Of a stretch of DNA of 64,000 bases, positions 27,665-48,388 are shown one piece after another. The notes beneath the pieces were generated by a model. It was not told the origin of the DNA and made no database searches. It saw nothing but the letters and a program-made list of their open reading frames with translations. The DNA comes from Antitrichia curtipendula (lineage: Eukaryota; Streptophyta; Bryopsida; Hypnales; Leucodontaceae): contig OX579636.1 in assembly GCA_951230915.1 (NCBI GenBank), positions 42,287,912-42,351,911 of the forward strand. The letters are read 5' to 3'. A program made the position numbers and the translations under genes. Within the stretch, counting starts at the first letter, position 1, and every line of letters starts with the position of its first letter.

Positions 27665-27682
27665 CTTCACCCCAAGGTTGTC
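27665..27682 (+). repeat. Left target duplication and terminal inverted repeat of the giant hAT
   Basis: CTTCACCC (27665-27672) is the target duplication and CAAGGTTGTC (27673-27682) is the terminus. An 11-bp inverted repeat, TCCGGACGTGA and TCACGTCCGGA (27685-27695 and 27706-27716), follows with a 10-bp spacer, forming a strong terminal hairpin. Confidence 0.88.
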
Positions 27683-27684
27683 TA

Positions 27685-28256
27685 TCCGGACGTGACGTGG
27701 GCTTCTCACGTCCGGATGTCATGACACGTCCGTCCTCACGCGTCCTGACGCGTCACAACCCGTCGCCGATACTGACGGGACCATACGGAGCGCGGATGAA
27801 GTCTGTCCATTCTGCGACGGCGTCGGGCCATCTCCTAGACGGTCACTCCATTGCCGAATGGACATCCATCTCTTGGACGAAGAGCCCGTCTGTGGACGAA
27901 GAGCCCGTCTGTGGACGAAGAGCCCGTCTGTGGACGAAGAGGCCGTCCGCTGGACGGTAAGCCGTCCCCTGGACGCTAAGCCGTTCTTTAGACGGAGAGT
28001 CCGTTGCTGGATGATAAGCCGTCTCCTGGATGGAGAGTCATTCCCTAGACGGAGAGCCCGTCTCTGGACGGAATTCTTGTCTCCAGAACGGTAATCCGTC
28101 CCTTGGACGCGAATCCGTCTTCTGAACGGGAAACCGTCCACTGGATGGAAAACTGTCCCGTCCCCTGGACCGGAATATCGCAGGACGGGACAGTTGCCAC
28201 TTGGACGGTTTCGTTGGCGGGGCTGCGGGTTTACGGTCCACCCCATCAGCCGTCAC
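27685..28256. promoter_or_regulatory. Left subterminal GACGG/CCGTC array
   Basis: About 570 bp with roughly two dozen GACGG or CCGTC pentamers by eye, in both orientations. It includes a unit of about 17 bp (GTGGACGAAGAGCCCGTCT-type) repeated three times at about 27892-27940. Density and position match the subterminal repeats of hAT elements, where Ac transposase binds AAACGG-type sites; here the shared core would be ACGG. It lies directly upstream of the transposase gene and ends just before the telo-box cluster at 28266. Confidence 0.75.
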
Positions 28257-28265
28257 TCCGTCTAG

Positions 28266-28292
28266 CTGGGTTTAGGGTTTAGGGTTTTAGGG
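28266..28292 (+). promoter_or_regulatory. Telomere-like (TTTAGGG) motifs before the transposase gene
   Basis: GGGTTTAGGG, TTTAGGG and TTTTAGGG occur in a row between the GACGG array and the transposase ORF. In plants, telo-boxes of this type are common in promoters of growth-related genes. A chance or recombination origin is also possible. Confidence 0.4.
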
Positions 28293-28529
28293 AGGGCTTC
28301 AAGGTGTATGTTAAGGACTTCTGCCTATTCAAGTTTACTTTCCCTTGCTAATTTTGCCTTTCCTGACTTGGTTGGAATACAACCATTGCGGTAGAACGAA
28401 GTCCAAGAAGAGTGTGTTGTGGTGGCACTTGTTGTGAGAGTAACAAGTGTTGTTTCCACATCACATTTCAAACAGAATACTAATCTTTTTTTTGGTGTAG
28501 GGGTAGGTAAAAGAGGACAAATAAGAGCA

Positions 28530-31500
28530 ATGGGTGGAGGAAGATCACAGTAGGAACCTTGGTATACACTACAGCCAGATGGAAAAGTTGTTTGCAAGTT
28601 CTGCGAAGCTTTGCTAAGCTATCAAAAGGATCGGTTGCTTTTTCATTTGGGATACAGATGAAATGACACCCTCCTTGGAGTGAGAGCGTGCACTAAAGTC
28701 AATGCAGCCGTGAAGGTAATGTTTTTTAATTGTGGAGGACATATACCTACGGACACTTCGCATGGAACTGGACACGACGTGGAAGTGACATCACCATCAA
28801 CGATACTACCAAATGTAGTACGTGGTGAGCAACAACCTGATGCTTCAATCTCGGCAAACGATGGAGGAGAAAACACTGGGGGGCAAAGCTCTCAAGTACG
28901 ATCATCGGAGGCGCCCAACCCTAGTTTGATCCACAGTCGATCGATGAGGCAACTGTCTGTACAAGAAGGAATGAACGCATCAAACAAGCAAATACTAGAC
29001 AAGAAGTGGGCTAAGTTTTTCTACGAAGCCAATATACCATTCAATGTAGTGAGGCATCCTGCTTTTCTGGATGCAGTGAAATCAACATCGGAATCGAGAG
29101 TTGGCTACAAACCTCCAGCGTACCATGCACTTCGTACAAAGCTCATAAAATCTACAAAAGACAAAGTGGCAGCAATTGTAGCAGAGAAGACGAGGGCACC
29201 AATCCACAAGTATAGCGTTACAATATGCTTTGATGGATGGGACAACGTTACACATCGACCATTGATGAATGTCATGTTGGCATGTACAAGTGGAGAGGTA
29301 TTTCTTGGATTGATAGACATAACAAGCGAATGCAAAGATGCTATTTACGTGGCTAACTGCATGGGTGATTACATTGACGAGGGCACAGAACGTGGTACAA
29401 GTTTGTACAGACAACGCAACAAACATGTTGGCCGCTGGCGCTCTGTTACTTCGTAGATTTCCACACATATATTTTCAAAGGTGTTCAGCACATACACTTG
29501 ACTTTCTACTTGAAGATTTGGGAAAACAAGATTGGATTACAAGTATGGTCAAGAAAGCCAAGTCAATTGTGAAATACACTCGAACGCATCACATGCCACT
29601 TGCAATCTTTCGACGACATTCTCCTAATCACATTTTGAAAAATCCCGTTCAAACACGCTTTGCAACCATATTCCTCATGATCGAACGTTTGGTGGAGGTG
29701 AGGGAAGCGGTAGAATCGACAGTCCACGATCTGCAGTGGAATGAGTACACGCGGAGATTGGCATCCAATCAAAAGAACAGAAAAGCTAATGATGTGCGAC
29801 AATATGTGCGAACGGATGAATTTTGGAGGAAATGTTTGAACTTTGTGTACATAGTGGAGCATGTGTTGATTGCTCTTCGAGAGTTTGATGGCAAGCACCC
29901 GTGCTTGGACAAGGCATGGCTTGTGATGAAAAAGGTGGAAAAGCATGTTTTATCTTTGGAGAATCCACCATTTTCATTAGAGCAGAGGTATGCAATTTCC
30001 GCCACCGATGATTTCTACAAGCGTTGGGACATGCTCAGGACAGATTTGCATTACGCTGGGGCTCTATTGAATCCTTTTTTACTTGACGAAGTCTTGCTAA
30101 TGGATGATGATGAAGCAAGAGAAGCCATATTGAGAGTTTTGCGCAAATTGGCTGTTGGAGATCAAGCATTTGCTTCAACTTTGTCTGAGTATCAAGCATT
30201 TAGAGATCAACGAGGCATTTTTGGTGGACTTCCTGATGTAAACACCTTGAATTTGCAGCCTCACAAATGGTGGGACCTTCTTGGAGCCGGTGCTCGTACA
30301 CTTGCACTGATTGCCAGAAAGATCCTCGCGCAAGTGTGTTCTGCATTGTCCTGTGAACGCAATTGGAGCATGTATTTGTTTGTCCACAACAAATCACGCA
30401 ATAGATTGACATCAGAGCGTGCTGAGGAATTGGTTTACATTTATACCAATTCCAAGACTCTTAGAGAAAGGGCTGCAGCAAATCCGACAAGGTGGTACAC
30501 TGAAAACATGATGTCAGAGGATTCCATGACAGATGAATTTGATGGTCTAGACTGTGGTTCGGTTCTCTCTAATCCCAATGATGACAATTCAGATGATAGT
30601 TCCAATGACGACAATGAGCCACTGTTTGATAGATTTCGTGGGGCGGGAGGAGTGCGTCCTCTAATTGATGCATCCGTATTTGACTTTGAAGAGGGGGATA
30701 ATAACAACAATGACTACGAGGGACATCAAGGAAGTCCACCACGAATGCCACAAACGTGGAATGCTGGGCCAAGTGGGGGTAATACAAATGAGGACGTTGT
30801 GGCACCGAGACCACTAAGTCCAGACCCTATGGATGTACAAGTTGATGCCACAATAGAAAGAGATGGTGTTGACGTTCAAAGAGGATGTGAAGAAGACGTA
30901 GTAGTACCACCGTCATTGCTCATGAGGACCACCCGCAGAGAAGGGCCCCCTCAAGGTGGAGAAGCACATATGGCCCCTCCAAATCGAGTCTCGCTTGCAC
31001 AACGACAAATGCCAATATTGGAAAATCTACAAATCCAAAGTTCATCAAGGCCGTCTAGTTCCGAAGTTCGTCCACACGAACCAACTTCGTCGATAGGTAC
31101 ACGATTGGCTGGTATGGTGTCACAACGTGCGACTAGAAATACAAATTCATTGCGGCCACCTGTACATGCCAATAATCGAGGGAAGCGTCCACGACCACAA
31201 GGTACTACTAGTGAACGTGTGAGTAGTAGAACACGTAGAAGGCTGAGGAGGGAAGAAGCGGCTACCCAACCATTTTTAAGAGAAGTTCAAACATGAGGAC
31301 CCAATACAGATGGCATTATACACGCAATGGGCCAACGACCTCTTCGGACATTGTCTTCTATAGCTCGACCACAACGAAACCGCAATTCCGAGGCCTCCAG
31401 CGAAAGTGGTAGTGCACCATCCAATAATGATGGTGAATCCATCGGTGGTACTATAGGTGAAGATGGTGAGGTTCCAGGAGATAGTGATTACAGGGGGCCG

Positions 31501-31605
31501 GTGCCTCGTTAAGGTCCACTCAAAGAAATTGGTGGTAACGAACCAATAGTACAAGAAGCAAATGCAAATACTTCTATGCGCATTCTTAGGCATGGAAGAC
31601 GTTGA
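28530..31605 (+). pseudogene. hAT transposase (BED finger, DUF659, dimerisation domain), inactivated
   Basis: The start ATGGGTGGAGG is followed by a BED-type zinc finger: CKFC near 28595-28606, then FHLGYR near 28640-28658. DUF659 and the hAT core follow: CFDGWDN (first catalytic Asp), VCTDNATNML (second Asp), FQRCSAHTLDFLLED, and the C-terminal dimerisation block ALSCERNWS (catalytic Glu). A long acidic and Arg-rich tail ends the protein. Lesions: TAG at 28551, TGA at 28659, a one-base frameshift near 29375-29390 (from GDYIDE into QNVVQVC), TGA at 31294 and TAA at 31510, after which the frame stays open to about 31605. An acceptor-like TTGGTGTAG precedes the start. The catalytic residues survive, but the protein cannot be made whole. 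It is presumed to be the element's own transposase. Confidence 0.9.
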
Positions 31606-32927
31606 ATGTTTTTGAAAAGACAATAGGGTCTTCATGTTTTCAAATGCAATGGTTTTAGAGGCTCAATACCTTGCATATTGAAATCAGCATTAATATGAAA
31701 TATGACTTTTGTTCCTTTCATTCTCATGGAACTGTTTACCCCTAAAGTCCCAAAGTCATTACACAAAAAACAACGCAAAACTGTCTTTTCTCTTGCATTT
31801 GCCTCAACATACGGAAAAAATGTTTTCTACAACATCTAACCGTAAGATCTTATACTTCACATGTTTTTTATCACGTGGTAAAAGTTTCATGAAGTTTGAC
31901 CGAATAGATTGAAAGATATTAGCATTCAAACTTGGAAAAACTAGTTTTCTGAATGCTAGCTTTGCAATTTCAGATTAACTTTCACTGTGATTTATGGAAA
32001 ATTGGGCCTTCGGGGCACTATTGTTTTTGAATTATTTTTTTGAATATTCAAGAATCGAGGTCAAAATTTGAAAGAATTATTGCAATTGAAAACTATGTTT
32101 GCAATCCAAATAACACAGTCTGGTGTTTTTTTCATGTATGTTTTTTTTTTTTCAAATTTCATTAAAATTAAAATTATAAAACATTATTTTCGGTTCATTC
32201 ATTCATTTATGATAAGAGTTTCAGATTATTCTAATACATATTATAATTGATAAAATTTGATTTCCACGTTTAGCTTTATAAAATCATAATAAAATAATTT
32301 TTCCATTAAATTTTCTGAAAAAAAAAACATATATAGAAAATGAATTCTTACGTATGTTGAAAAATATTAAAATATTATGCTGATTTTCAATAAAAATATA
32401 AATTTGGTTTGATAGTCAAATTTGACTTCAAGCTTTTCTTTGTGGTTGTTTACTAGTTTTGGGCATGAAAAATTAAATAAACAATTGAAATTTTTTTTGA
32501 CTAGAAATCTCTATTGATATTTGTACCTCTTGTAAAAAACTAAAAATTTAGAATCTCTTGAATTGTTTTTTCTATTTTTACTTATTTATGGCATGAAGTG
32601 CAACAAAAATGTTGACAATTACAATTTTCCACAAAACTAATTGAAATTTCTTGTAGTGATATACAATTCAAAGTTTTTAGTACTAAAGATATAAGATTTT
32701 TGTTTAAACTCAATTTAAATGATAAAGTTAGGGAAGACAAAAAGTTTTTTACAACTCAATGTTTAGGTAAAATATGTTTATAACTTTATATAAACCAAAA
32801 TGAGTACAAAATGCATTGAAGCCACAAAGTGTGCTACATTGTTATGGATGTCCTCAAGCCCATACTATAATAACCGCATGTGCTAAGTAAACACTAATTT
32901 TGCAACTACATGGTAATACACTATTAT
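31606..32927. other. AT-rich spacer with a partial TTAA MITE
   Basis: This lies between the 3' ends of the convergent transposase and kinase genes. A family end, CCCCTAAAGTCCCAAAG, starts at 31739 after TTTA, followed by ACATCTAACCGTAAGATC and AGATTGAAAGATATTAGC in the family order; the other end is not identified. The rest, to 32900, is very AT-rich with no gene. Confidence 0.6.
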
Positions 32928-34742
32928 CTAATCTTCATTGCGCGCCTGCTCTTCTTGAAGGTCTTGTTCTTTGCGGGCCTCGCGGTAGCAATCCACGGGT
33001 GGTGTCCAAAACGTTGGAGCACCACTTAGACGTTGCACAACATATGTCACCGAGCGTCGTTGTAGTGGCTCCACCTTGCACAATTCACCCAATATGGTTT
33101 GAAACGTACCAAATGCCGTATGGTCCGGAATCATCTCTACATTTCCACAATTTTTTTTCCATACCTTCATAGCCAATTTTCCTATGGAGTATCCGTCCGT
33201 GTGTATACTAACACACGGTGGCTTAACCCTGCGAGTAGGAGATGATGAAGTTCCTGTCTCTCCAGTCAAGTACATCAACTCAAGAGACACCCACCAACGT
33301 TGCGCTGAAGTTGCCTGAAACTTCCTTGGACAGTTGAATTGGTAAAGAGAAGGGGTTTCTTCGTTGATGCGGCTACCCATTCCCCAATCACATAGACCAA
33401 TCCACACGGTTCTTCCATCATCATTCGGAAAGTGAAGCATAATGTTCTCCGGTGTGATGTCGTTGTGCAATACAGAGCACTGTTGCACTGCATCCACAAT
33501 GCAAATCATTGCCCACGCAAGTTCAGTGTGCTTGCGTCTATATGCCATGAGTTGTTTCATGGCTTGCATTGTTTGGGGAGTTGCATCGTAAGCCAACTCT
33601 CTAATTTCATCTGGATCTCGGTTCTTCTCATCAAGGGTAAACATGGCGCCGAGAGTACCGCCATTCCACCATTGCGAATAACACTCCATGGTCATGTCAT
33701 TTATAGCAAAGAATTTGATGACCCTTGGATGCTCGCATGGACATACCAATGCCTTGATGGACAACTTCTCTCTGGATTTCTTCAATTCATCCACGCGCAA
33801 GGTTGACTTCCCAGCTAATTCCATATTCTCGGGAATATGTTTTGAATTTTGAACACATATTTTGCGCACCCTCCCATGCCCCCCTTGTTTGCTATGGCCA
33901 GACAAAGGAACCACCACCACTCCTCTTTCAAGGAAAACCACTCCTCCTGCAGCTTGTTGACCAAAGGCCAAGTTCTGACTTTGTTGAAACCACGGAGCGG
34001 AACGGATGTTGTTTGAAGACAATCCACGCACTGCTTCATGCCAACAATACACCTTCTTGTGCAACAAATTCAATGCTTGTTGTCTGGGCACTACACTCTT
34101 CTCAAAGCCTTTTATTTTTTCCGCAACTTGGGCAAGGTTGAAGATACACGTTTGCACTTGTGACTCCAACCAATGATCGAAGCATTCTTTTGTGCGGTCT
34201 TCATGCCACTCATCCGCGCTCATTGTTGTCCAGAACACATAGTGGAACTTTTGTTTAATGACATCCACTCCCTGTAATCCGCGTGAGACGTATATTGTGT
34301 TCAACTGCGAAATCGAATACTGATCAAAAAAATCCAACGCCACTTCATGCAATTTTCGCATTGCACCCTTGCTTGACCACTTCTCTGTATTTGTAGCCTT
34401 GTGCCTCCTTCGGGTTTTTTTCCCCTTTGAAGATTCTCCGCCCTCCACAGCAGCTACGGACCCTTCTGCAACTACGGCCTCTGAAACGGGCTCTGGTGAT
34501 TCCGCATCCGGGTCCATAATCGGTGCATCTCCAACACCTGTCCACCAATCATCAACCTTTCTCTTCAAGAAATCGCGACCAGCCATCATGACAGTAACAA
34601 GTAACAAATAATCAAAATGAAAGGAATTAGGAATTCGGCTTCCACAAAGTGAAAAACCGCCCCCCTTATTCCTCAAACCAGCCTCTACCCAGCACCCGCG
34701 CTCGCAAGCAAGGACTGCAACCAATCCAAGACAAGAGAGCAT
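32928..34742 (-). CDS. Divergent protein-kinase-domain protein, cargo of the giant hAT
   Basis: Intact ORF of 604 residues from the ATG at 34742, or 553 from the MMAG start at 34589. Residues about 80-275 have no recognised domain; KGKKTRRRHK near 106-115 is a likely nuclear localisation signal. The kinase domain spans about 280-580: Gly-rich loop GGHGRVRKICV (287-297), probable beta-3 Lys at 312, HPRVIKFF, HNDITPEN (catalytic D428, N433, with Asn in place of Arg in HRD), CDWG (D452, Trp in place of Phe in DFG), and HTDGYSIG (D516) in helix F. The key Asp, Asn and probable Lys residues are present, so activity is possible. It is convergent with the transposase and lies upstream of no other gene. 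Substrate unknown. No stop or frameshift, unlike the transposase. Confidence 0.82.
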   Translation of the reverse strand: MLSCLGLVAVLACERGCWVEAGLRNKGGGFSLCGSRIPNSFHFDYLLLVTVMMAGRDFLKRKVDDWWTGVGDAPIMDPDAESPEPVSEAVVAEGSVAAVEGGESSKGKKTRRRHKATNTEKWSSKGAMRKLHEVALDFFDQYSISQLNTIYVSRGLQGVDVIKQKFHYVFWTTMSADEWHEDRTKECFDHWLESQVQTCIFNLAQVAEKIKGFEKSVVPRQQALNLLHKKVYCWHEAVRGLSSNNIRSAPWFQQSQNLAFGQQAAGGVVFLERGVVVVPLSGHSKQGGHGRVRKICVQNSKHIPENMELAGKSTLRVDELKKSREKLSIKALVCPCEHPRVIKFFAINDMTMECYSQWWNGGTLGAMFTLDEKNRDPDEIRELAYDATPQTMQAMKQLMAYRRKHTELAWAMICIVDAVQQCSVLHNDITPENIMLHFPNDDGRTVWIGLCDWGMGSRINEETPSLYQFNCPRKFQATSAQRWWVSLELMYLTGETGTSSSPTRRVKPPCVSIHTDGYSIGKLAMKVWKKNCGNVEMIPDHTAFGTFQTILGELCKVEPLQRRSVTYVVQRLSGAPTFWTPPVDCYREARKEQDLQEEQARNED

Positions 34743-34786
34743 CGTCAGAGCAGGAGAGATTGTGGCGAAAGTACCCTAAAAACAGT

Positions 34787-34808
34787 CTTATATACCCATT
34801 TCACGTGG
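34787..34808 (-). promoter_or_regulatory. TATA box and G-box upstream of the kinase gene
   Basis: On the minus strand TATATAAG lies at 34794-34787 and CACGTG at 34808-34803. Initiation about 30 nt below the TATA box would fall near 34758, just above the ATG at 34742. This supports the longer protein or a short leader followed by the start at 34589. Confidence 0.6.
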
Positions 34809-34989
34809 CCGGGGTAAACTGACCCCCTTGCGAGGCCCTCCGGGCCGACCCTGTTTTCCACACAATTTTTTTTTGCAAATTATGAATTCATATTTGGGAT
34901 CAGAGACCCCTAATTCGTTCAATCACACCAATAATAATCCCTGGATCAGCCCAAAATAGGGGGCTTTTTTTTACATGCACCCTTGGTGA

Positions 34990-35470
34990 GGCCGAGCGAG
35001 GGGGTCAATCCGCCCCAATCTTTCACGTCGACGGAGAGGCCGTCGAGAGGACGGACAGAGCGTCTAGGGCCGTCCAGAGGACAGGAAAGCCATCTAGGGT
35101 GATAAGCCATCCAGGGGCCAAGCCGTCCAGCCCGCGGACTGGCCGTCAAGAGGACGGGAAGGCCATCCAAGGGGGGAGATCGTCCAGCCTGCGGACTGGA
35201 CGTTCAGAGGACGAGAAGGTCGTCCAGGGGCTAAGCCGTCCAGCCCACGGACTGGCCGTCGAGAGGACGGGAAGGCTGTCCACGGGGAGAGACCGTCCAG
35301 CCTGTGGACTGTTTGGCTTGAGGACGGGAAGGCCATCCAACCCGCGGACTAGCCGTTCAGGGGGCCAAGCCGTCCAGCCCGCGGATTGGCCATCGAGAGG
35401 ACGGGAAGACTTTTGAGAGACGGGAAGGCCGTCGAGAGGACAGGAAGGTTGTCGAGCGGGCCATTCAAAA
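34990..35470. promoter_or_regulatory. Internal GACGG/CCGTC array upstream of the kinase gene
   Basis: About 480 bp of irregular repeats of the form GAGGACGGGAAGGCCGTCCA, with CCGCGGACTGG variants, in both orientations. Composition and unit match the arrays at 37705-38110 and both ends of the element. It lies about 200 bp above the kinase TATA box. Confidence 0.75.
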
Positions 35471-35479
35471 CAGTGCTGG

Positions 35480-37690
35480 CCGAGTGTAATTCATTTCTAA
35501 TCCTTGTTCGGAGAATTTTTCATTTATGTGGTTTGGCACTCTCGGACTTGTCAGGACAGGTGTCCTTGCTTTCAATCGGGCATTAGTCTACGGTGGCAGG
35601 TAGTTTAGGAGTGCTAACTTAATGTTCACATTTGTTTCAATTAGAGGACAAATAAGTACCAGGGATGACATTCAAATGCTCAAAACGAGGTTTATTGCTC
35701 ATTTAGAATGGAATTCTATTTTGTTGCACGTAGATAATGGAAGAAACATAGAAAAAATCATAGAAGGTCAAATTGAAAACTTCTTAATGTCGGTCCTAGA
35801 ATGTTCTATTTGGATGTTCATGTTAACATTTGATTCATTCTAATTGCACCCATTTTCACAAAAGTCGTTGGCATTGGGCAATGTTTTTATTACAAAAATC
35901 CCAGAATCTCGCAATCCCTTAAAATAATTTATATTCTGTAGGGCTCAAATTTGAATTCAAATGAATTTTATCAATTATACATAGAACAATTTCACCTTTG
36001 GGATTATTGTATTTTGATTCCATCCTTCCCTGCATGTAAGTGCACCTGACAATTTAGTATTTTGTTGAATTTTAAACCCTGCCTACACTAGTATACTCAA
36101 CTTAAAGTCTCAAACGTACGAACATTCAATAACTTACTAAGCCCGGATCAAATATACAAAGATCAAGACAAAAACCACCCTCTAAATGCTCCAGTTAAAG
36201 GTAGTAAGATTAAAACTTTGAAATGGTTAATTATGAAATAAGTGAAAGACCTCCTAAACAACATATGTCATATGCATATCATTGATTCATGTAAAACATT
36301 GTTTCGGCTTTCCATTCATACATTACAAAAAAAAAATGTAGCCCTATACATCTAATCTTAAGAATGTTTTACCTTTTAAAGATATTGTTATGCCGTTTTT
36401 TGGTGTCTTCAATATGTTTTATAAAACTTTGATTTTAAATCATTAATCTATTTTTTTCCAATTCAAACTTCAAAGACTACATCTCGATCAAGTTTTGCAC
36501 TTGTAATGCCAACTAAAAAAAGGAAGGACATTTTTCGTAGTTTCCGGTCCATGCTAGGTTTTGAAGTAAACCCTATAGGCCAATACCCTAAATCCCAAAC
36601 CCTAAACCCTAAACCCTCTTCACTGTTGCAATTTTAAGAGTATTTGATGTTCAAATTTATGTAACTATAGCAAATAAGAGTGGATTGGTGTAATAAAATT
36701 GAAATGCAGCATTGAGTACATGAACTTGACATTTTTGTGGTCTCTATATTTTTTTTATGGCTTCTAAATTATAAAGCAACTAGCGGTGAATTACTATATT
36801 TTTTCATATGGATTGTTTATTAATTGCTTATGTAGTATCGTACGTTAACCACTAAACTGACTAAAGTCCCAAGGCCTCTTTTCCATCCTAAATCTAAAAT
36901 AAATTGCCATTTCTATAATAAAGAATTAAAAAAAAAAAAATGAATGTGTTTAGGCCTTTAAGGTGCACATCTACTTGTAGTATGTAAGATCTCATACTAG
37001 AGTACTAGACTAGTGTTCAATTGACTGGAAGAAATTTCACAAACTTTGCCTATGTAGAATTGTAGATTGCAAGATATTTACAATAAACTTCAACCTCTGA
37101 ACACCCAACGGCATCAATTAGTGCCAATTTGATGGCAATTCAATCACTTCAATGAGATGGAATGATTGTGGAAGTGTTCATTTCATTTTTTGGGGACCTT
37201 CCATGTTGAGTTACAAAGTGTATCCAAATGATTTTGTAGTCTTTCCGATATTTGCTTCCACGTAATTTAGAGTTTAGGAAATTAAAAAAAAAAAAAATAT
37301 GCTACTTTAGTGTATTTTGGGAAGTTGTTGCTCCTTACTCTAAATCTGAAATTTCTCCCCCAAATTGATATTTTCTGAGTTTGAGTCTAACTATCAAACA
37401 AAAGTTCATTTTCTCTAGTTCCTATTTTATGTAAAATCCCCCAACACGAACCTAAATTGAAATTTCATTATTGCGATTTGCACTTCGAATGTGATTTTAA
37501 TGTCTACTACATTCAGTACATTTTAAATAAATCATGAAATAGAAATTAAGTTTACGCTATGATGGATTCTAATGTCATTATCCTTGTGATATATACACAT
37601 GGTGAAAATTTGAAAATTTGAAAATGAATTTTCTATTTGATGTGATTTTGTCGAAACTTCAAATAAAAATCAATTTTCAAAAAAATAAAA
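35480..37690. other. AT-rich spacer between two arrays
   Basis: No gene is supported; a 73-codon plus-strand ORF at 35622-35843 has no recognisable content. A telomere-like ACCCTAAACCCTAAACCC lies near 36599-36616. A partial TTAA MITE starts near 36862 (AAAGTCCCAAGGCCTC and following family blocks) without a clear end. Confidence 0.5.
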
Positions 37691-37704
37691 ATAAAAATTT
37701 TGAA

Positions 37705-38110
37705 GGGCCATCCAGGACGTTTGGCAAGCCGTCAAGAGGACGGGCAGGCCGTCCCAGACCACGAACAGGCCGTTGAGAGGATGGGCGGGCCATTCCCGAC
37801 CAGGGACAGGCCGTCAAGGAGACGGGCACCCCGTCCTTTTGGACGGCCTTTCCGTCCAAGAGACGGGTAGGCCGTCGAAGGGACGGGTATACCCGTCGAG
37901 GAGATGGGTTTTCCGTCCAGGAGACGGGCAGGCCGTCGAGGGGACGGGCAGCCCGTTGAGATGACGGAAAATCCGTCCGTCCAACTTTCGGGCGGTGGTG
38001 TAATTATTTCCCGAACCTGTCGACGGCACCCCAAAGCCGTTGACGGCTTTCCAACCCTATGTCGGACCTCTGTGGACTTATCGGCCGTCCATTCCAGGGC
38101 CGTCCCACAC
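37705..38110. promoter_or_regulatory. Internal GACGG/CCGTC array upstream of the RING gene
   Basis: About 400 bp of GAGACGGGCAGGCCGTCGA-type units in both orientations, of the same kind as the other three arrays. It ends about 290 bp before the RING start codon. Confidence 0.75.
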
Positions 38111-38401
38111 CCTGGACGGTCTGGATTTGGGGGGATACGGGTTGATGTTATGTTAATTACCCTGCCTAATCGAGTCGGTAATTGGGGGGTATAAGTGAAT
38201 TTTTTTTGATAGTTCACCTGCTTCCTCTTTTGAGTTGCATTGTACGAGCTTGAGAAAGCTTCGCACTGCAATTTGAGGGGAAGTGTTATACATTTGACAT
38301 TGTTTTGCCACATTTCAGTTGCCTTCAGGCAACAGAAGGCAAAGCAAATTGTCATTGTATTCGCATACAGTATCGTGTGTGTCATTTTCCAGGTATCAAG
38401 A

Positions 38402-40519
38402 ATGGACGCAAAGGATGTAGCAGGAGGTTTGGGACCTGGAGGTGAACCCCCAGGTAGAAGGAAGAAAGGAAACAGAGCAACCTTGGATTGGGGCACACTT
38501 AATGCCCAAGCGATTATGGCAAACCATGGGTGGGTGGAGGCAGATGGCCCATGGACAAGAGTGACATGTCGGCAGTATATAGATTGGGTCCACATCAACC
38601 GTCATTGGCCACACGACCGGTACGAGGTGCACGTGAAATTTGGCGTGGTAAATATTGACCAGTGCCAACATCCGCACTTCAAGAAGAGGATGATTGAAGT
38701 GTCATTGGCACTTTGGGGTTCAAGATCCAAGAAAGACGGGACACTTTCATTGTGCCAAATGGCATATGCAAAGGTTTTTCTTGGCAAGGATGTGGACTGG
38801 AGCAGCTTTTTGGGCAGAGCGCGGAATAATGCATTTCCAAATCGAACTTGCCACATTGCACAAAATCCTGCTGTGCCATTGGACAATGTACCAAATCCTG
38901 CCGTGCCATTGGCTGATGTCCAAAATGTGCAAATGAACGCGGTTCCACAAGCGGAGCGTCCAAGGACGGAGTTGATGGAGGTAGAAGTTGGTCAGGGCAG
39001 CGGTCCAGATGTCAACCAACAAGATGTGATTGGTGGAGTGCAAGCTGACGATGAAGAAGTAATTCGTTTGCGCCAATTAGTACAAACATTGCAAGCAGAA
39101 AAAGAAGAAGCACTACGACAACATGCTGCAGCGTTGGAAGTTCAGAGTGCAAGGATGCGGGCTGTTGTAGATGAAAATGTGCGCCTCGTCGCATGTGAAG
39201 CCGAGCTCGTAGAGCGTGAAAGGCGGGTCAGCACAAACTCAGTTCCACCACTCGATGTTGTAGTGGAACGTGCTACATACGGTGCAGACAAAGACACACC
39301 AGGCCCGAGCAATAGATGTGAGTTTGTGCTGCGATCACGATCCACTTTTCCAAGTGCAGAAAGTGCCACATTGGATATTATGCGTGCACGTGCTGAGCGA
39401 GTTGAAGCAGAGCTTGGAAGTACTTGCACAAACATGGAAGAATTAACAAACACCATGCGTGCTTTGGAACTTTGTGCCAACAACGCTGAGGCAGAGGTGG
39501 CGGTGCTAACTACAGCTCGAACAGCCTTGGAGCAAACCATGACCGCAATGAGTGCTCAAAATATGCGGTTGGTCCAAAATCCTGAGAAGGAGCAGATGCT
39601 GCTTCAAGTGTACAACATGAAGTTGACATGCAGCTTAGCGCTAAACGAGGCTGAGCAAATGCAGCGTGAAGTGAGGAGAGTGGCTGCGGAATTCAATGAT
39701 GGCGGTCAACGTTATTTTGGCTTGACCTCGTGGCCTCGGGTGGCAGAAATGTTCACCAATGATTTGCTAGTGTTTAGGGAGAATTCAAGCATCGATTGGA
39801 ATGCCCGTCGAGACTTGGAATTCCAATATAATATCGATCACCAACGGTACGGGCCACCCAACCACGATGGCATTACGCCACTAGTGTGGCCTTCCGTTCC
39901 AGATTTTGTACAAGATGGAACAACATGTATAATGTGCCAAGAACCGTTTGGCCCCAAGGGTGGATGGATTCTTGGTACATGTGGCCATCTATACCACCCC
40001 GTGTGTCTCATTCCACACATGGTCACCAGAAAGAGATGTGCGCAATGCAGGGCTCCATTTCATGCACAACTATACAAAACGTTTGGCCTTCAAGACCACA
40101 TGCCTGAACATTACGAGCACAATGAAGAAAATTTACCGGGCATCGGTAATAGAGTACATTGGGGGTCCGACATGACATGGCTTTGGAAGTGGGGCCACAA
40201 CAACCGACACCTCCCGGCAGGAACGATGGCTGGCATACCATGGACGAGTGACGCCCAAGTGACAGAGGTGATCAAGAGGGTGTTTGGAGACAGTGATCCA
40301 GGGCGTCGACTATATTTTGGTCAGATTGCCGGTGGACATTGGGACCCAGACAACTTAATTTTTGTGCGTGCACCACATCCACAACGCATCATGTTTAACT
40401 CTCAAGGCCAGCCAATCAGATTTGAGGGGGAATTGGGCTTTGAGGAAAAAATGGCGTACATTGCAAACAATACCTTCCATGAGCCAGTCCTTGTGAATGA
40501 CATTTTCCCACTTACATAA
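38402..40519 (+). CDS. Coiled-coil RING-H2 protein, putative E3 ligase, cargo of the giant hAT
   Basis: Intact 705-residue ORF from ATG at 38402. TTTTCCAG lies just upstream, suggesting a 5' UTR intron. Residues 1-150 form an unrecognised Trp/His-rich domain (for example HINRHWPHDRYEVHVKFG). Long heptad-like helices follow at about 220-290 and 320-440. A RING-H2 finger lies at about 509-549: CIMC, then CGHLYHPVC, then CAQC, matching CX2C..CXHX2HX2C..CX2C. An unrecognised C-terminal domain of about 150 residues follows and ends NDIFPLT. RING-H2 proteins usually recruit ubiquitin-conjugating enzymes; the target here is unknown. The gene follows a GACGG array as the other two element genes do, and has no lesions. 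RING-finger identity is firm; ligase activity is inference. Confidence 0.85.
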   Translation: MDAKDVAGGLGPGGEPPGRRKKGNRATLDWGTLNAQAIMANHGWVEADGPWTRVTCRQYIDWVHINRHWPHDRYEVHVKFGVVNIDQCQHPHFKKRMIEVSLALWGSRSKKDGTLSLCQMAYAKVFLGKDVDWSSFLGRARNNAFPNRTCHIAQNPAVPLDNVPNPAVPLADVQNVQMNAVPQAERPRTELMEVEVGQGSGPDVNQQDVIGGVQADDEEVIRLRQLVQTLQAEKEEALRQHAAALEVQSARMRAVVDENVRLVACEAELVERERRVSTNSVPPLDVVVERATYGADKDTPGPSNRCEFVLRSRSTFPSAESATLDIMRARAERVEAELGSTCTNMEELTNTMRALELCANNAEAEVAVLTTARTALEQTMTAMSAQNMRLVQNPEKEQMLLQVYNMKLTCSLALNEAEQMQREVRRVAAEFNDGGQRYFGLTSWPRVAEMFTNDLLVFRENSSIDWNARRDLEFQYNIDHQRYGPPNHDGITPLVWPSVPDFVQDGTTCIMCQEPFGPKGGWILGTCGHLYHPVCLIPHMVTRKRCAQCRAPFHAQLYKTFGLQDHMPEHYEHNEENLPGIGNRVHWGSDMTWLWKWGHNNRHLPAGTMAGIPWTSDAQVTEVIKRVFGDSDPGRRLYFGQIAGGHWDPDNLIFVRAPHPQRIMFNSQGQPIRFEGELGFEEKMAYIANNTFHEPVLVNDIFPLT

Positions 40520-40634
40520 TAGATATGATATAGACACACTTCAACTTCTGAGGACTTTGGAATCGCAACAAGAACTGCAGCAATTTTTGAGAAATAGCAT
40601 AGCACGCGGTGTTGTAATCGAAGAAGTAGACTAG
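40520..40634 (+). other. Coding-like extension in the +1 frame after the RING gene
   Basis: Overlapping the RING stop, the +1 frame is open to TAG at 40632-40634 and reads amphipathic, protein-like sequence (DIDTLQLLRTLES, then RNSIARGVVIEEVD). It may be the original C-terminus lost by a one-base change or an alternative splice product. Chance is possible at this length. Confidence 0.35.
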
Positions 40635-40901
40635 ATTGTGTATAACTAGATAGATGTATAGAATTAAATACCGGAAGTTGTACAAAGTGAACGTATGTAA
40701 TTATGTAAAGTCTTTATTAGTTTATCATGTACTTCAACGGATTTATAAAATATATACATTTATCGTTTTCTTTCCACCTCGTGTATTGTTGCTTCGCCTT
40801 TGTCTATTTTTGTAATCTATTGGACCTTTTTGTAATAGTATAGAAGAAGCTTGTATGCTTAGATGGTAGGTAAAAGAGTGTTCTATTTTGTTTTTGGTGA
40901 A

Positions 40902-41530
40902 GCCCTAAAGTCCGAAGTCCATTTTTTGGCCCAAACCACCCTAAACCACCACTTTTGCTATGTTCACCTATGAATTAAATTTTCCATTTTTGGGGGGAAT
41001 CGAACCAAAGGATCTTGTTCTACACTTGTCTTAGATGATGTGATAAAAAATTTGTGATGTTTGACCGTATGGATTGAAAGTTATTAGCATTCAAAGTGAA
41101 AGAAGCAAATTTATTTTAAGAAGTTGCTAGGATTGCCCGCTCCACAAAAAAACCCATAACTTTTCCATTCCTAATCCAAATGGGATGAATGAAAGCCTCC
41201 CATTTAAAAGAAAATATAATCCAACTGGAAAAAAATATACAAATTTGTATTTCATTTTTTTGTGGATTTTTTTGTCTACCCGGAGTCTTGGACCGCCCAG
41301 TGTCCCGATCTCCCATGTTTGAGGTTATTTTGGCATACCCTTTGCTCCTAGGCACCGATTGGAATAAAAATTGTATTATGAATAAACTCATAAGTTTATC
41401 TATCATTCCATTTTATCATTCTTATGAAAAAGTTTTCAAAAGTTTCAGTAAAAAATGAGATCATGGGAGCCTATCGAAAATCCATTTTGTCCCTTGCAAC
41501 AAGGACAATGAGAGTGTGTTACTTTAGGGG
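40902..41530. mobile_element. TTAA-family MITE inside the giant hAT
   Basis: The left end GCCCTAAAGTCCGAAG follows TGAA, and the right end ACTTTAGGGG precedes CTAA; both flanks are eroded TTAA. Internal blocks TGACCGTATGGATTGAAAG and ATTAGCATTCAAAGTG fit the family. About 630 bp, no ORF. Confidence 0.65.
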
Positions 41531-42115
41531 CTAAGAAATAAAAACAATGGAAATTCTTTACCAAAGCAAGAAATAAATAACAAATTATTTTATTGCTTCA
41601 TATTTGATGAAATCTCCTTTAAGTCTTTAGAATTAAACCGAAAAATAATTCACGTTTTGTAACTTTTGTTCTATTAGTTTTAATCTTTTTTTAGTTGGAC
41701 TATTGATTGACTACTGCCTCATGTTTATTTTTAAATCCAAAGTTTACAAATTAAAGTATTGAACATTTTCCATTTTTTCTCAAATGGCATTATGGAAATC
41801 AAATGATCAAAGTCTAATATCTTGCAATTGCTAACTTGATAAGGTCACGCTACATGAAATTTATTTGAAAATCAATTGAAATAAATGACTTTATGAATGG
41901 CGATCCTATACTTGAAAGTCTTAAATTGAATAGATTCTAATTTTTCTTTTCATTTCATTTCAAGATGAACATGGTGAAATGACAACTTGGAGGTTTTTTT
42001 GGCAATAATTAGCATAGGGCCTACATGGATTAATATTTTTGAATTTCTTGCCATATAGTCAATGTAAAATCAATTTAGCAACTTCTCTAATTAGAAATTC
42101 AATAACAAACTTTAA

Positions 42116-42490
42116 TCCCTAGAATCCTAGATGCCCAAGTCATGTTTTGAGCTCCTACGAATTTGCTCTAAATTGAACAAAATGTCAACATTTTGATTAG
42201 GTGACTAGGTGTATCAATTAAAAAAAAATTGTAACCGTATAAATTCAAACAAGACATGTTACAAATCTCATAGGTTGCTAAAACACAAAATATCACTTAT
42301 AGAGTAAAAGATAATAATGTTTGAACATGAGGGTGTTAAAACTACAAAAATGATGTGAAGTCTTCCAATCCTCTTTTCAGTTTTCACAAGTCAAATTTAA
42401 AAAGTTTTTGACCAAAAAAATATGAGTTTAAATTGCCTAACATATATATCAATTTATGGCTTTTAAAAATATACTCTATATATTTTTTAA
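42116..42490. repeat. Truncated copy of the 13366-14012 element near the right end of the giant hAT
   Basis: TTAA at 42112-42115 precedes TCCCTAGAATCC. Blocks GAATTTGCTCTAAATTGAA, CATGAGGGTGTTAAAACT, AATCCTCTTTTCA and ACCAAAAAAATATGAG match the complete copy in order. Confidence 0.65.
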
Positions 42491-42519
42491 TATATTTCTT
42501 TTAATTTTATTTAATTTTA

Positions 42520-42736
42520 AAGGTCGCCCGTCCATCGCCCGTCCAGTGCGGCCGTCCAGCGCGGCCGTCGATGGAAGGTCACCCGTCTAGCGCGGCCGTC
42601 CAGGATGAACGTCCATCCATTTCCATAGTTTTCATCTTCTATCAACGATTCTCGTCCAGATTTCATCCTAACAGACGTCGGGGTTGAATCCTGATGTCCG
42701 TCTGGACATCCTGACGGACGGACAGGATGTGACGGG
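42520..42736. promoter_or_regulatory. Right subterminal GACGG/CCGTC array of the giant hAT
   Basis: About 215 bp with repeated GCGGCCGTCCA and GCCCGTCCA near 42520-42600 and GACGGACGGAC near 42713-42722. It is shorter than the left array. It ends directly at the terminal inverted repeat. Confidence 0.72.
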
Positions 42737-42754
42737 GACAACCCTGCTTCACCC
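42737..42754 (-). repeat. Right terminal inverted repeat and target duplication of the giant hAT
   Basis: GACAACCCTG (42737-42746) is the inverse of CAGGGTTGTC and matches the left end in 9 of 10 positions. CTTCACCC (42747-42754) repeats the left flank exactly. Confidence 0.88.
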
Positions 42755-44383
42755 TCTCTTTTCATATCAACTTCTAAAGTCCAACCTTGGCAACCCCATC
42801 CAACCCCATGCCAATCTCATATTATTGTCAAATGTATTGGACTCTGTCTGCTAGGTTGAAGGGGAGAAAATGACTCACCTTACCTAAGTTGTTGACAAAG
42901 TTCCTAATGAATGGCTATGCCGTTCTTAATTGCACATCTTTTCCCAAATTCCCAACTAATTTGTTTTGAAGACTCGTACAACATTGGATTGGCGGTTCAA
43001 CAATCTCTCCCTTTTGTCACCTCTTAGTACCAATAAGTCTAATTTTTCTACCCACCTTATTGCAACTCTAATGTGCTTCCAAACTCTTGGAATTATTTTT
43101 TTTTCTTGTATGAAACCACTTGCAAAATATTGTAAGACTTCAAATAATTTTTTAAATAATAAAATAATTTTTTAAATGATAGAATAATTTTTTAAATAAT
43201 AAATAATTCTTATAATAATAAATAATTCTTATAATAATAAATAATTCTTATAATAATAAATAATTCTTATAATAATAAATAATTCTTATAATAATAAATA
43301 ATTCTTATAATAATAAAATAAATTTTTAAATGATAAAATAAATTTTTAAATGATAAAATAACTTTTTAAATGATAAAATAACTTTTTAAATGATAAAATA
43401 ATTTTTTAAATAATAATATAATTTTTTAAATAAAATATAATAAAATAAATTTTCACACTAACATTGTTTTCATACAAAGTAAGTAGTGTAAAATTCAAGA
43501 AGTAGTGCCAAACTACATTTCACTTGACACTACTTCTAACTGCCTAGCTCAAATTGTGCCTTTGCCTCAAAAATATTAAAAATAAACTTTGCAATAGCCT
43601 TATAAACAACTTCCCAAGATCTTTATGTCTATTACTTCTTTCCTGTATTTGTTGGACATGTTTACTTATAGTGGTATTAAGATCAACCAATAATTGATAT
43701 TTGTCTTTAAATTTTGCAATGTGTAATTCTTTCATTGATTGGAAGCTAATTGAATTGCATATTTATAGAAATTATATTCTACTAAAAAAAGATGAAATAG
43801 AGAGCTTATACAACACCATCATCAATACACATGGTAAAATGTTTACTTCAAATATATTGTACAATTTGGATTTAAGAGTCTTAGACAAACAAATTCCTAA
43901 TTTATGTTGGCACCAAACAAGACTAAATGGTTATTGCACACCTTTTTCTAAAACTAAGGGAAACATTATTAATTGTATAAAGATGACAATTGCATACCAA
44001 AGTGCATCCAAATTTCCAAATCTTATTATGTCATTTATTAAGAGTCCAAATAGAATTCATTATTAGGAATTCAATAACATTGTGATAGTCTAGTGTTGCT
44101 TGTAAAACTAATATGAGATATATGGAGTATATAAAGTGGAACAATTCAATGCCATCAATCACCCAATTCTAACATCTATTGGACCTTCCCATTTGCATCA
44201 CTCATCCACCCATTACTACAATCATATCAACCCTTTAGCATCATGACGTCCAATGCACTTGGGGAAGGGATACATTAGTATGTGGTATAGCTTTACCAAT
44301 TTAGTCCCTAACAAACTTTGAAAAATCACATAAAGTTCATTTCTTGTTAGAATGTATTGATTCTACTTGCAAATGGATTCTCT
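42755..44383. other. AT-rich stretch with tandem repeats
   Basis: 43141-43440 is a compound tandem repeat: units near AATAATTTTTTAAATGATA, then about six copies of an 18-bp AATAATTCTTATAATAAT-like unit (about 43195-43315), then AAATAAATTTTTAAATGAT-like units. No gene is supported on either strand elsewhere; ORFs near 43544-44066 are long only because the sequence lacks GC. Confidence 0.6.
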
Positions 44384-45212: not shown

Positions 45213-46847
45213 TTATTTCCTGCGGATCTTTTCCTTGACAGGTTTCGATACGCTGTAAATAGCTAGACCTCCGATGAGAATGGCTGCACCTAGGAAAAAT
45301 CCAGACGGCAGTGATGGAGGCACTCCTAAGTAGGGCCATGGAAGAGTGAAGGCCCAAATTGAGAGAGGAATTGATAGTGTTACACAAAGAGATGAGACTA
45401 TGGCTGAATAATGTTTCAACAAACTAAGGGAAAAGACGTTGAAAGCCATATTTACTACGATATAGAGTAGTGGCACTAAAGGAGCACCTTCACAGCCGCT
45501 GACTTGAGACCCAATGTTCACGAAACATACGTAGCCCTCTTTAAGGCTATGTGGAATCTGATGGAAAGGCACTCCTCGAGCGTTGAAGACCACGGGTAGA
45601 ATCATTGACACGAAAAGTGTCTGAAAAAGTGATCCAAACGTATTCACCACAAAGAGGTCTAGATTGCCTCCTTTCAACTTTTGGGCTCCATCCTGGAACA
45701 GAAGTTCCTTCAATATCGTTGCAGCTGCGAAGAAGAAAGTGGAGCCGATCATTACTAGAGGCCAGAAGTAGCCAGATTGCTGCACTGTACCCGCAACAAC
45801 ACCTCCCGATCCACTTGCAACCACCACTACAACACCAGCAATCACCAACAAGCAGCCTCCAATTTGCCCCAACGAGTAGCGCTTCCTCAGAATTGTCGAT
45901 GAAAGAAGAAGCTGCCAAACTAAAAACACCTGCCAGAAGATTGAATTTTCTGTTAATTTTATAAAATCTAAAATTGATAAGGTCGCCATTGCGTCTTGCT
46001 AACAAGCTCACCTCTAGGCATTTGAAGACATATGCAACAGCTTCAACAGACTGTTTCGTATTTATGTGCACAATTTTCAAAAAACAAAACCATAATTCCA
46101 CAAATAATCAGATGATTTTGGAAATACCTGAGCCAAGACAGGGATGGTGGCGCCGGGAAGAATTGCTGCAGAGACCGTGCCCATGGCGATTCCTAACGCT
46201 TCGAGCGCACCAATCAAGACAAATTTGCCCTTCGGTACTGCAAGCATCTCCTTGGTAACTATCCCTGCTCGGTAACGCATGAGGAGTATCGACGAATATG
46301 CAACAACGTATGTCACAGTGCTGAATTGTGCCAAGAATAGAGGATATCTACTTAATGGAACAAGAGCCATCTTATATAGTATCTTATTGGCGCCTGCTAA
46401 GAGAACGGTAGCCACAGCGGTGCAAACGAATTGCACATCCTTCTGCAGGAAAGCCCTGCCTAAGAAAGTAACAGAGTGAAAATCTGCATGTGCTCCAGAT
46501 GAAGAAGATGCGCTGGCAGCTGCCGCATTACACACTAACGTTGGTTTCGCTGGCGATCTTCTTGCCTTGAGGCTCAACAAATGACGACCTGGGAAAACAT
46601 AGTCCTTGCCAATTTGGCGCGATGAGAGATTCGAAAGATGCGTGGCTGAGTCGATGTTGAGTTTGAAGCGATCGGAGGGAATTTGTGGGAGAATACAGTG
46701 TGCTCGCTCCGATGACTGGAAATTAAAATTGATACGGCAAAGCGATCCTTGAGAAGGTGAACACGTCGAAACAGAGGGAAAGTCCAGAGATACTCTTCTA
46801 CGGGAAATATATTGAAGAGAGTTCGCCGAATGCAGTGACACGGCCAT
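45213..46847 (-). CDS. CLT: CLT-type (CRT-like) plastid transporter, two exons
   Basis: Exons 46847-46128 and 45929-45213 (minus) join at GCTCAG|GTGTTT with a 198-nt GT-AG intron and give 478 residues. The first ~110 residues are Ser/Arg-rich without many acids, like a plastid transit peptide. About ten hydrophobic helices follow, with family blocks KILYKMALVPLSRYPLFLAQ, YRAGIVTKEML, VFLVWQLLLSS, GCLLVIAGVVVVVASGSG, LKGGNLDLFVVN, GCEGAPLVPLLYIVVN and PWPYLGVPPSLPSGF. In Arabidopsis, CLT1-3 are plastid-envelope transporters for glutathione and gamma-glutamylcysteine, related to the Plasmodium CRT family. The gene appears intact. I recall more introns in angiosperm orthologues, so the single intron stands out. 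Confidence 0.92.
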
Positions 46848-48388
46848 GGCTGAGTAAGTAAGGACTCAAGGAAAGGGCAGGAGATTCTACAAGAGAAAGA
46901 GGTCTCTCTGATAACTATAACAGCCTTCCTTGTCTCTGCAGCTGTACAAAATCCCCTGCCCCCACGAGAGACCTCAGTCACGTAGCCCCGTGTTCAACGA
47001 ACACCTCTGTCTGCTCTCAGCATACCCTCTCGCCCTGCTCAATGGCGCAATTCAGTATGCACGAACAACTATCGCATCCCTTGCCACCTGCCTAAAATTA
47101 TTGCTCCAGATCAGTGACCGGCTTCCGATCACCTTCCGATCGTCCAACTGAGGAATAAAATTATAAAACTACAACCCTGGGGACGAAACGAGCCTCGCTC
47201 TCTTGCTCGCTGACTCGCTCGCTTCTTTGTGCCCGAATTTCGATTCCTCCCTTCAGCACCAAATATCAGCAAGAATCCGCAGCCAAATGAAGTCAGACTA
47301 CTAAAAATCAACCCCGCATGTGCGATCCGTCCCTTCCCACGCACCTCACTTATCCCTCCGTGCACTTTCCGCAATACAACTCTTACATTCCCTCCTTGAA
47401 AGAATCAAGACTCCTGCGACGATTCCCCACACACAATCGTCGCAAAGGAAGGCTGATCGGCAACTTCGCCTGCTAATCGCCGTACGACATCATGCACGCG
47501 CAGCAACTAATATAGAAACCTGCCACAGGGAAATTTCTACTAATTAAGCTTCTCCAAAAGAAAAAGAAAAAGTAACAAAACACGGAAGGCGACGGACGGA
47601 TCATGCGAAAACAGACTGCAAAGACGGGGGGAGCTTCGGTGGGACCTGCCGAGCACTGTCAACTGCACTGGTGTGAAGGCTTAGGTTCATGATAACCGCC
47701 AGATACATTGTCCGCTAGTCGGTCGCGCACTCGCGCAACGCGCATCCTTGATTCACTCTCCAGACTCCCGGTCAGAGCTCCACTTAAGTTTTCTTTACCT
47801 TCCCCGAATCTTTACCTTTTTCCAATGGGGTCGCGCGTCGACATCGTCCCGCTCGTAGCGCCGGCCATGGCATCAATTCGATTCTCCACCCTCCTCTCAA
47901 GCTGGTCACGCAGAACAGCAGAAAGCAGTGCTCCATGGCAACCTTTTCTCTGTTTTGTTTTGAAGCAAATGAAATTCATGGCGTGTGTCACCATGAAACA
48001 CGCGAGGGTCTCTGCCGTCGTCGAGCCCTACCCCGATCGCCGTTGAGCTCTGAACACCGTGCAATTGGAAGATTCGTTTGCGTCGCCCTGGTCCCCGTGG
48101 ACCTCTGAAGACCGTGCTTTGGAAGATTTGCGACGGCTCTTTTTCGGATTCTTTCGTTGTCGCCCTTGTCACCGTATTGGATTTGTGGCCATTTTTCACT
48201 GACGGAGTTGCAATTTCATGATAAAACTTAGAATACAGTACTTTGTGAAATATTCTCCATCTTTTTAATAAATAAAAAAATAGCAAACTTATTTGAACTT
48301 ATTCGCCCGAACAAGATTATTTCACCTCATTTGAATGAAGGTACATACATTTGGATGAATAATTGAAATTTCATCCACAATCAAACTA
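46848..48388. other. CLT upstream region, GC-richer, no supported gene
   Basis: It contains the presumed CLT promoter and leader. ORFs up to about 126 codons exist on both strands at 47700-48290, but none has recognisable content. A motif GACCGTGC..TTGGAAGATT..GATTCTTTCGT at about 48108-48155 recurs at 52326-52376, so part of this region is repeated. Confidence 0.5.

What the first reader, a model, noticed from the sequence alone, without database searches (positions are those of the whole stretch)
27673..42746. A 15-kb hAT transposon that carries a protein kinase and a RING-H2 protein
Seen: 10-bp inverted termini CAAGGTTGTC/CAGGGTTGTC and an identical 8-bp flank CTTCACCC on both sides define one unit of 15,074 bp. 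It holds a hAT transposase, a kinase-domain ORF and a coiled-coil RING-H2 ORF. Known: hAT elements make 8-bp duplications, have CAGGG-like ends and normally encode only a transposase in a few kilobases. Inference: this is a cargo-bearing giant hAT in which signalling or ubiquitin genes travel with the transposon. I know of no described hAT family with this gene set.
Basis: partly seen in the sequence, partly recalled or inferred. Interest (0 to 1): 0.94.

Follow-up and report, generated by a model that had tools for sequence, protein, structure and literature searches.

The report
Three-gene 15-kb hAT transposon family
A very common 15-16 kb plant jumping gene carries, besides its transposase, a protein kinase and a RING-type protein that travel with it, each gene sitting behind the same DNA repeat that marks the transposon's ends, which suggests that the extra genes serve the transposon rather than being passengers.

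Summary
The unit at 27673-42746 is real. In the same 400-Mb (inferred plant) genome its left and right ends were each scored at 40 places, itself included. Copies carry transposase > kinase < RING > between those ends and have their own 8-bp duplications: 11 of 12 elements examined are perfect; the twelfth differs at 2 of 8 bases but has an uninterrupted paralogous site. Two further copies (15.9, 16.3 kb) are largely co-linear. All neighbours found by separate searches have the expected order and strand. (1) GGACGG arrays lie at both ends and upstream of all three genes in 3 of 3 copies read, so kinase and RING look like accessory genes, not cargo. (2) A distant high-copy kinase lineage (30% identity) keeps a relative of the RING protein beside it, with arrays of another motif; no RING finger, ends or transposase were seen there. 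(3) The window copy is damaged. Selection within the genome is uninformative and function untested. Eight searches of an open-access library listed no such element.

The parts
27665..27672 (.). left target-site duplication CTTCACCC
27673..27682 (+). left terminal inverted repeat CAAGGTTGTC; by eye, homology between 8 loci starts here
27688..28262 (.). array 1 of GGACGG/CCGTCC-type repeats (19-20-bp units), left end and upstream of the transposase
28530..31512 (+). hAT transposase gene (DUF659 + Dimer_Tnp_hAT); this copy has a frameshift and 3 in-frame stops against the C9 copy
32928..34589 (-). protein kinase gene, single exon, Met at 34589 (open frame to 34775); this copy has Lys for the alpha-C Glu and SLE for APE
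35030..35433 (.). array 2 of the same motif, about 440 bp upstream of the kinase start
36568..36617 (.). telomere-like (AAACCCT)n stretch, present in all 3 copies read
37715..38119 (.). array 3 of the same motif, about 280 bp upstream of the RING gene start
38402..40519 (+). coiled-coil RING-H2 gene; this copy ends some 40 residues earlier than its three relatives P0010-P0012
42528..42735 (.). array 4 of the same motif, right subterminal region
42737..42746 (-). right terminal inverted repeat (CAGGGTTGTC read inward)
42747..42754 (.). right target-site duplication CTTCACCC

Best explanation
The window holds one decayed copy of a high-copy, three-gene hAT transposon family of a plant. Shown: the 15-16 kb unit moves as a whole, bounded by CAGGGTTGTC-like termini, with 8-bp duplications, and carries transposase, kinase and RING-H2 protein in fixed order. 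Shown: arrays of GGACGG mark both ends and lie upstream of each of the three genes. Inferred: the transposase binds GGACGG arrays at the ends, as Ac transposase binds AAACGG, and the same arrays upstream of each gene put all three genes under one element-specific control. Inferred: kinase and RING/coiled-coil protein are accessory factors of the element that modify the transposase or the host's silencing machinery by phosphorylation and ubiquitination, rather than host genes carried along by accident.
For: Ends recur: 40 left and 40 right ends scored, out of 536 and 482 candidates. Whole-genome hits scored: transposase 67 of 1733, kinase 71 of 1433, RING 63 of 2449 candidates. Linkage within 20 kb: transposase-kinase 32 of 67, kinase-RING 27 of 71, left end-transposase 19 of 40, RING-right end 13 of 63. 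Every such neighbour was in the expected order and strand; random kinase positions give 0.125 kinase-RING neighbours on average. Duplications: 11 of 12 perfect; the twelfth is explained by an uninterrupted paralogous site. Two more full copies are largely co-linear. Kinase P0004 and transposase P0017, from other data sets, each have a longest contig of 6480 bases, so probably share it (from the length alone). GGACGG: 46, 39, 36 and 51 in the four arrays of 3 copies together, against 9 in the remaining 41,480 hexamers. The kinase's catalytic residues are conserved in the family except in the window copy, P0003 (HRD Asp) and the truncated P0008. Two kinase lineages 30% identical each keep a related partner gene nearby.
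Against: Within-genome substitution ratios are close to neutral for all three genes (pairwise dN/dS medians 0.68 kinase, 0.68 transposase, 0.81 RING), and counts by allele frequency show no consistent purifying trend. So no recent selection on kinase or RING was demonstrated. No binding, kinase, ligase or transposition activity was measured. In lineage 2 no RING finger was found before the partner's stop, and no transposase was seen in the 8.8 kb read. Only 24 of 71 kinase and 21 of 63 RING matches are free of stops. Many hits stand alone in the capped lists: 25 RING, 16 transposase, 15 kinase, 14 right-end and 10 left-end clusters of one feature.
Confidence: 0.7

Rival explanations
1. Passive cargo: an ancestral hAT captured a host kinase and a host RING gene between its ends, and they have been copied along without a role.
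For: Near-neutral variation within the genome; most copies scored carry stops; plant DNA transposons are known to carry captured gene pieces (general knowledge).
Against: The genes are full length with one long open frame each; the kinase keeps its catalytic residues in most relatives 56-81% identical; both genes share the terminal motif in their upstream arrays; a distant lineage keeps kinase and partner together. On the contig inferred to be shared by P0004 and P0017 the kinase is more like the window's than the transposase is (69% against 56%), one case only.
Confidence: 0.17
2. The kinase-partner pair is an older independent mobile or virus-like module, and family 1 is a fusion of it with a hAT.
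For: Lineage 2 has kinase and partner in tandem on one strand with its own motif arrays, and no transposase in the 8.8 kb seen. Kinases of two further ORF-size classes (560 and 548 aa) have no such partner among the hits scored.
Against: No relative of kinase or RING protein was confirmed in viral contigs.
Confidence: 0.2
3. Chance: the ends belong to two unrelated insertions that happen to share a flank, with host genes between them.
For: Internal arrays resemble the terminal ones, as separate elements lying side by side might.
Against: The same ends, genes and duplications recur across the genome. By eye, homology breaks at the terminus in 8 of 8 left-end loci printed.
Confidence: 0.01

Closest known systems
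hAT superfamily, Ac/Ds of maize (PMC3260210, passages seen)
   Same: 8-bp target-site duplications, short terminal inverted repeats (11 bp in Ac), and a hexamer repeated in the subterminal regions (AAACGG in Ac, which binds the transposase). The Dimer_Tnp_hAT domain marks the protein here as a hAT transposase.
   Different: Ac is 4.6 kb and makes one transcript for one 807-residue transposase. This family is 15-16 kb, has three genes, uses GGACGG, and has two further arrays inside, upstream of the kinase and the RING gene.
VANDAL elements with VANC anti-silencing proteins, Arabidopsis (PMC5735166, passages seen; PMC13317346, passages)
   Same: Multi-gene DNA transposons; short motifs accumulated as tandem arrays in non-coding regions; the motif differs between families and evolves with the protein.
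   Different: VANDALs are Mutator-like (MULE) elements. The Pfam scans of the three gene products gave hAT, kinase and RING families and some weak matches, no Mutator transposase or Ulp1 domain. Homology to VANC itself was not tested directly.
Teratorn and other giant DNA transposons (PMC10175614, title and start of abstract in a search listing only)
   Same: Large transposase-bounded units with many genes.
   Different: Teratorn is 180 kb and a fusion of a piggyBac-like transposon with (as I recall) a herpesvirus; no virus genes were seen here.

Membership tests
hAT superfamily | transposase with hAT dimerisation region | tested here: met
   PF05699 E 1.6e-9 in the window and 3.8e-9 in the C9 copy; PF04937 (DUF659) E 5.2e-40 in the C9 copy
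hAT superfamily | 8-bp target-site duplication | tested here: met
   11 of 12 elements perfect; the twelfth 6 of 8, with its uninterrupted paralogous site
hAT superfamily | short terminal inverted repeats | tested here: met
   CAGGGTTGTC or one-base variants of it at both ends of the 12 elements
hAT superfamily | subterminal short repeats at both ends | tested here: met
   GGACGG arrays at both ends in 3 of 3 copies read
hAT superfamily | DDE catalytic triad, RW and CxxH motifs | not tested
   only looked at by eye against recalled motifs; no alignment to Hermes or Ac
hAT superfamily | transposition or excision activity | not testable with these tools
   sequence only
Ac-type hAT | single-gene element of a few kilobases with AAACGG hexamers | tested here: not met
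   three genes, 15-16 kb, hexamer GGACGG
VANDAL/VANC anti-silencing system | Mutator-like transposase | tested here: not met
   the transposase matches DUF659 and Dimer_Tnp_hAT only
VANDAL/VANC anti-silencing system | VANC protein | tested here: inconclusive
   no such family named in the Pfam matches of the RING protein; no direct comparison made
VANDAL/VANC anti-silencing system | lineage-specific motif arrays in non-coding parts of the element | tested here: met
   GGACGG in family 1; GGCGACC arrays and no GGACGG in the one lineage-2 stretch read
Eukaryotic protein kinase | kinase domain with catalytic residues | tested here: met
   PF00069 in 9 of 10 members; catalytic residues conserved in the family, alpha-C Glu and APE lost in the window copy
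RING-H2 ubiquitin ligase | C3H2C3 zinc ligands | tested here: met
   all eight ligands in 4 of 4 sequences; ligase activity not tested

The most novel reading that the evidence does not exclude
A kinase plus coiled-coil/RING pair is a transposon-borne control module, spread over several high-copy lineages of this genome, that acts against host silencing or on the transposase. Each lineage has its own short DNA motif, arrayed upstream of every gene of the element, that has co-evolved with an element-encoded DNA-binding protein.
Probability: 0.3. Interest if true: 0.9.

Novelty: new variant of a known kind. Interest (0 to 1): 0.8.

Why it matters
hAT elements are usually described as single-gene transposons. 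A three-gene hAT that has multiplied through a 400-Mb plant genome, with a kinase and a RING-type protein wired to the motif that marks its ends, makes a testable case that DNA transposons can carry signalling enzymes for their own use. It would add phosphorylation and ubiquitination to the known ways in which transposons handle their hosts.

Tried and rejected
Viral contigs with kinase and RING protein, and prokaryote contigs with kinase: patterns matched but no relative was confirmed. Kinase structure predictions were poor (mean pLDDT 41.7 and 46.0) and were not used. PDB sequence searches gave only weak matches to ordinary kinases (best E 0.031), and RING fingers for the RING protein (best E 1.5e-5). 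The idea that internal arrays are remnants of the ends of two fused elements was looked at: a TIR-like CAGGGTTGTC occurs inside array 2 of the C9 copy but not in the window or C3 copies, and there are single TIR-like matches in L011, L036 and L038 of the 30 RING loci; not pursued. A search with the distant transposase P0020 (44 scored of 1783) returned mostly places at 42-43% that look like family 1, and did not tell whether lineage 2 is a hAT. Paper searches aimed at this element: listings only (15 of 97 papers, 1, 3, 0, 0, 0, 4 and 0 listed); none of the listed titles describes this gene set. Two further searches were for Ac hexamers and VANC, with passages seen; the 2026 review of gene capture by plant transposons (PMC13317346) has no occurrence of the words hAT, kinase, ubiquitin or RING in its main text. 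The library holds open-access papers only; Repbase could not be searched.

Full report
What was checked. The window is G000:C4:42287912-42351911 of a 400-Mb genome in 303 contigs. That the host is a plant is inferred: around the finding lie a gene of the BAHD-type acyltransferase family (PF02458) and a CRT-like transporter gene, and the named relatives of the transposase include the moss Ceratodon purpureus (45%) and Euphorbia lathyris (29%). The species is not known to me.

The unit. A 100-base piece of the left end matches 40 scored places at 91-100% out of 536 candidates, and the last 107 bases of the right end 40 places at 92-100% out of 482 candidates, the window's own place included in each. 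In the 8 left-end loci printed, the homology starts at the terminus and the flanks differ, judged by eye. For ten elements both ends were fetched: nine have identical 8-bp duplications. The window copy and a further copy on C3 (GTATGTGA) make 11 of 12. The twelfth, on C8, spans 32 kb and differs at 2 of 8 bases. Its flanks are 97% identical over 192 bases, straight across the junction, to an uninterrupted paralogous sequence in L073, a kinase gene of another lineage; each of the two duplicates differs from that site by one base. This is one empty site. The other 11 junctions had none among the sequences held: two further junction-crossing matches, both from C9b, are to that element's own right flank.

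Gene order. Separate whole-genome searches with the left end, transposase, kinase, RING protein and right end gave 40, 67, 71, 63 and 40 scored places. These lists are cut to the best matches, so counts are lower bounds and a hit without a neighbour says little; 25 RING, 16 transposase, 15 kinase, 14 right-end and 10 left-end clusters held one feature only. Within 20 kb: left end-transposase 19 of 40, left end-kinase 17 of 40, left end-RING 10 of 40, left end-right end 4 of 40, transposase-kinase 32 of 67, transposase-RING 16 of 67, transposase-right end 17 of 67, kinase-RING 27 of 71, kinase-right end 15 of 71, RING-right end 13 of 63. In every pairing, all neighbours found have the expected order and strand. 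Placing kinases at random on contigs C1-C10 gives 0.125 kinase-RING neighbours on average (200 rounds; all). Two complete copies (C9, 15.9 kb; C3, 16.3 kb) are largely co-linear with the window copy. Aligned blocks of 150 bases or more outside the arrays are about 88-94% identical to it and about 96-97% to each other; array stretches are less alike (73-92%), and parts of the arrays, the window's right array among them, and some short stretches do not align in such blocks.

The proteins. Transposase: DUF659 and Dimer_Tnp_hAT; about 1,000 residues in copies with an open frame. Kinase: about 553 residues from its likely Met, one open frame, conserved Lys, alpha-C Glu, HRD-type HND with Asp and Asn, DFG-type DWG and APE. 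The window copy has Lys in place of the alpha-C Glu and SLE in place of APE; P0003 has lost the HRD Asp, and P0008 is truncated. RING protein: about 640-800 residues, coiled coil, C3H2C3 finger with all ligands in 4 of 4 sequences. Related proteins exist in other data sets: 9 kinases at 31-81% identity, 3 RING proteins at 49-66%, 70 transposases. Kinase P0004 (2 contigs) and transposase P0017 (1 contig) both have a longest contig of 6480 bases, from which I infer, from the length alone, that they share a contig. There the kinase is 69% and the transposase 56% identical to the window's.

The window copy is a damaged one: frameshift and three in-frame stops in the transposase, two catalytic sites lost in the kinase, and a RING protein that ends some 40 residues before P0010-P0012 do. 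Matches without stops exist for the kinase (24 of 71) and the RING gene (21 of 63).

The arrays. In all three copies read end to end, GGACG/GACGG cores cluster in four arrays at matching places: left end, about 440 bp upstream of the kinase start (window), about 280 bp upstream of the RING start (window), and right end. The left array also ends about 270 bp upstream of the transposase start in the C9 copy. Together the arrays (two further small clusters of 5 sites each in C9 and in C3 included) hold 129 of 145, 172 of 187 and 234 of 249 cores in 1.6-2.5 kb. GGACGG is the commonest hexamer in three arrays and second in the right one (46, 39, 36, 51 occurrences in the 3 copies together), against 9 in the remaining 41,480 hexamers. 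All 30 RING loci inspected, the window's included, have clusters of the GACGG core upstream of the gene. Maize Ac has AAACGG hexamers in its terminal 200 bp that bind its transposase (PMC3260210, passages). The step from this likeness to transposase binding here is inference.

A second lineage. The distant kinase P0009 (31% to the window's) finds 83 scored places out of 1419 candidates, 34-40% identical to it. One stretch of the 533-residue class (L073) holds a full kinase, PF00069 E 1.9e-13, 30% identical to P0001 over 503 residues. Downstream on the same strand lies an ORF whose N-terminus matches the RING protein of family 1 (38% over 104 residues with P0010, E 1e-20; the match to P0012, which lacks most of that N-terminus, is weak, E 0.012). 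That ORF ends in a stop before any RING finger, so a RING was not shown there. Both genes lie behind arrays of another motif, GGCGACC, about 210-240 bp upstream of their likely starts (my count); a third array at 5995-6347 has a different unit with GGTCGCC in it; GGACGG is absent. Of the 83 kinases, 48 have this partner downstream on the same strand within 8 kb, and none has it within 8 kb in another arrangement. By class it is 38 of 40 for 533 residues, 5 of 5 for 522, 0 of 10 for 560 and 0 of 8 for 548.

Selection. Among copies in this genome the median pairwise ratio of replacement to silent change is 0.68 (kinase, 13 copies), 0.68 (transposase, 13 copies) and 0.81 (RING, 32 copies: the 30 RING loci plus C9 and C3). 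Counting alleles by frequency gives no consistent trend (ratios 0.36-1.34). This fits a recent burst of copies that decay near-neutrally, and cannot decide between cargo and function.

Reading. That this is a three-gene hAT that moves as a unit is close to certain. That kinase and RING protein serve the element rests on the shared arrays, the conservation of catalytic residues and the second lineage; I put it at about 0.7. How they act is inference: the nearest functional parallel is VANC of Arabidopsis VANDAL elements, which binds short motifs arrayed in non-coding parts of its own family and removes silencing (PMC5735166, passages). Nothing in the family scans made here relates the two kinds of element.

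Novelty. Eight searches of an open-access library aimed at it listed no title that describes a hAT with this gene set; only listings were seen, and subscription papers and Repbase were not searched. I file it as a new variant of a known kind: by the features tested a member of the hAT superfamily, with a gene set and internal arrays that the single-gene Ac type lacks.

Noticed in passing
L073 (G000:C4:46876301-46884700): Another high-copy kinase lineage with a RING-protein relative next to it and arrays of a different motif; termini and transposase unknown.
   Followed up: partly
G000:C8:403349-435840 (ends in L045, L046): A family-1 element whose ends lie 32 kb apart has inserted into a lineage-2 kinase gene; the extra length suggests nested insertions.
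   Followed up: partly
window 36568-36617: Telomere-like (AAACCCT)n stretch inside the element, also in the C9 and C3 copies, with a shorter TTTAGGG stretch near 28273.
   Followed up: partly
window 891-3878 (-): Long ORF with DUF4283 and a weak zinc-knuckle match, probably the first ORF of a LINE.
   Followed up: no
window 14152-15977 (+) and 45213-46865 (-): Host-type genes: acyltransferase (PF02458) and CRT-like transporter (PF08627).
   Followed up: no
window 43142-43441: AT-rich 20-bp tandem repeat, 15 copies, a few hundred bases outside the right end.
   Followed up: no
own genome, kinase ORF classes of 560 and 548 residues: Further distant kinases with no lineage-2 partner among the scored hits (0 of 10 and 0 of 8); their elements are unknown.
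   Followed up: no
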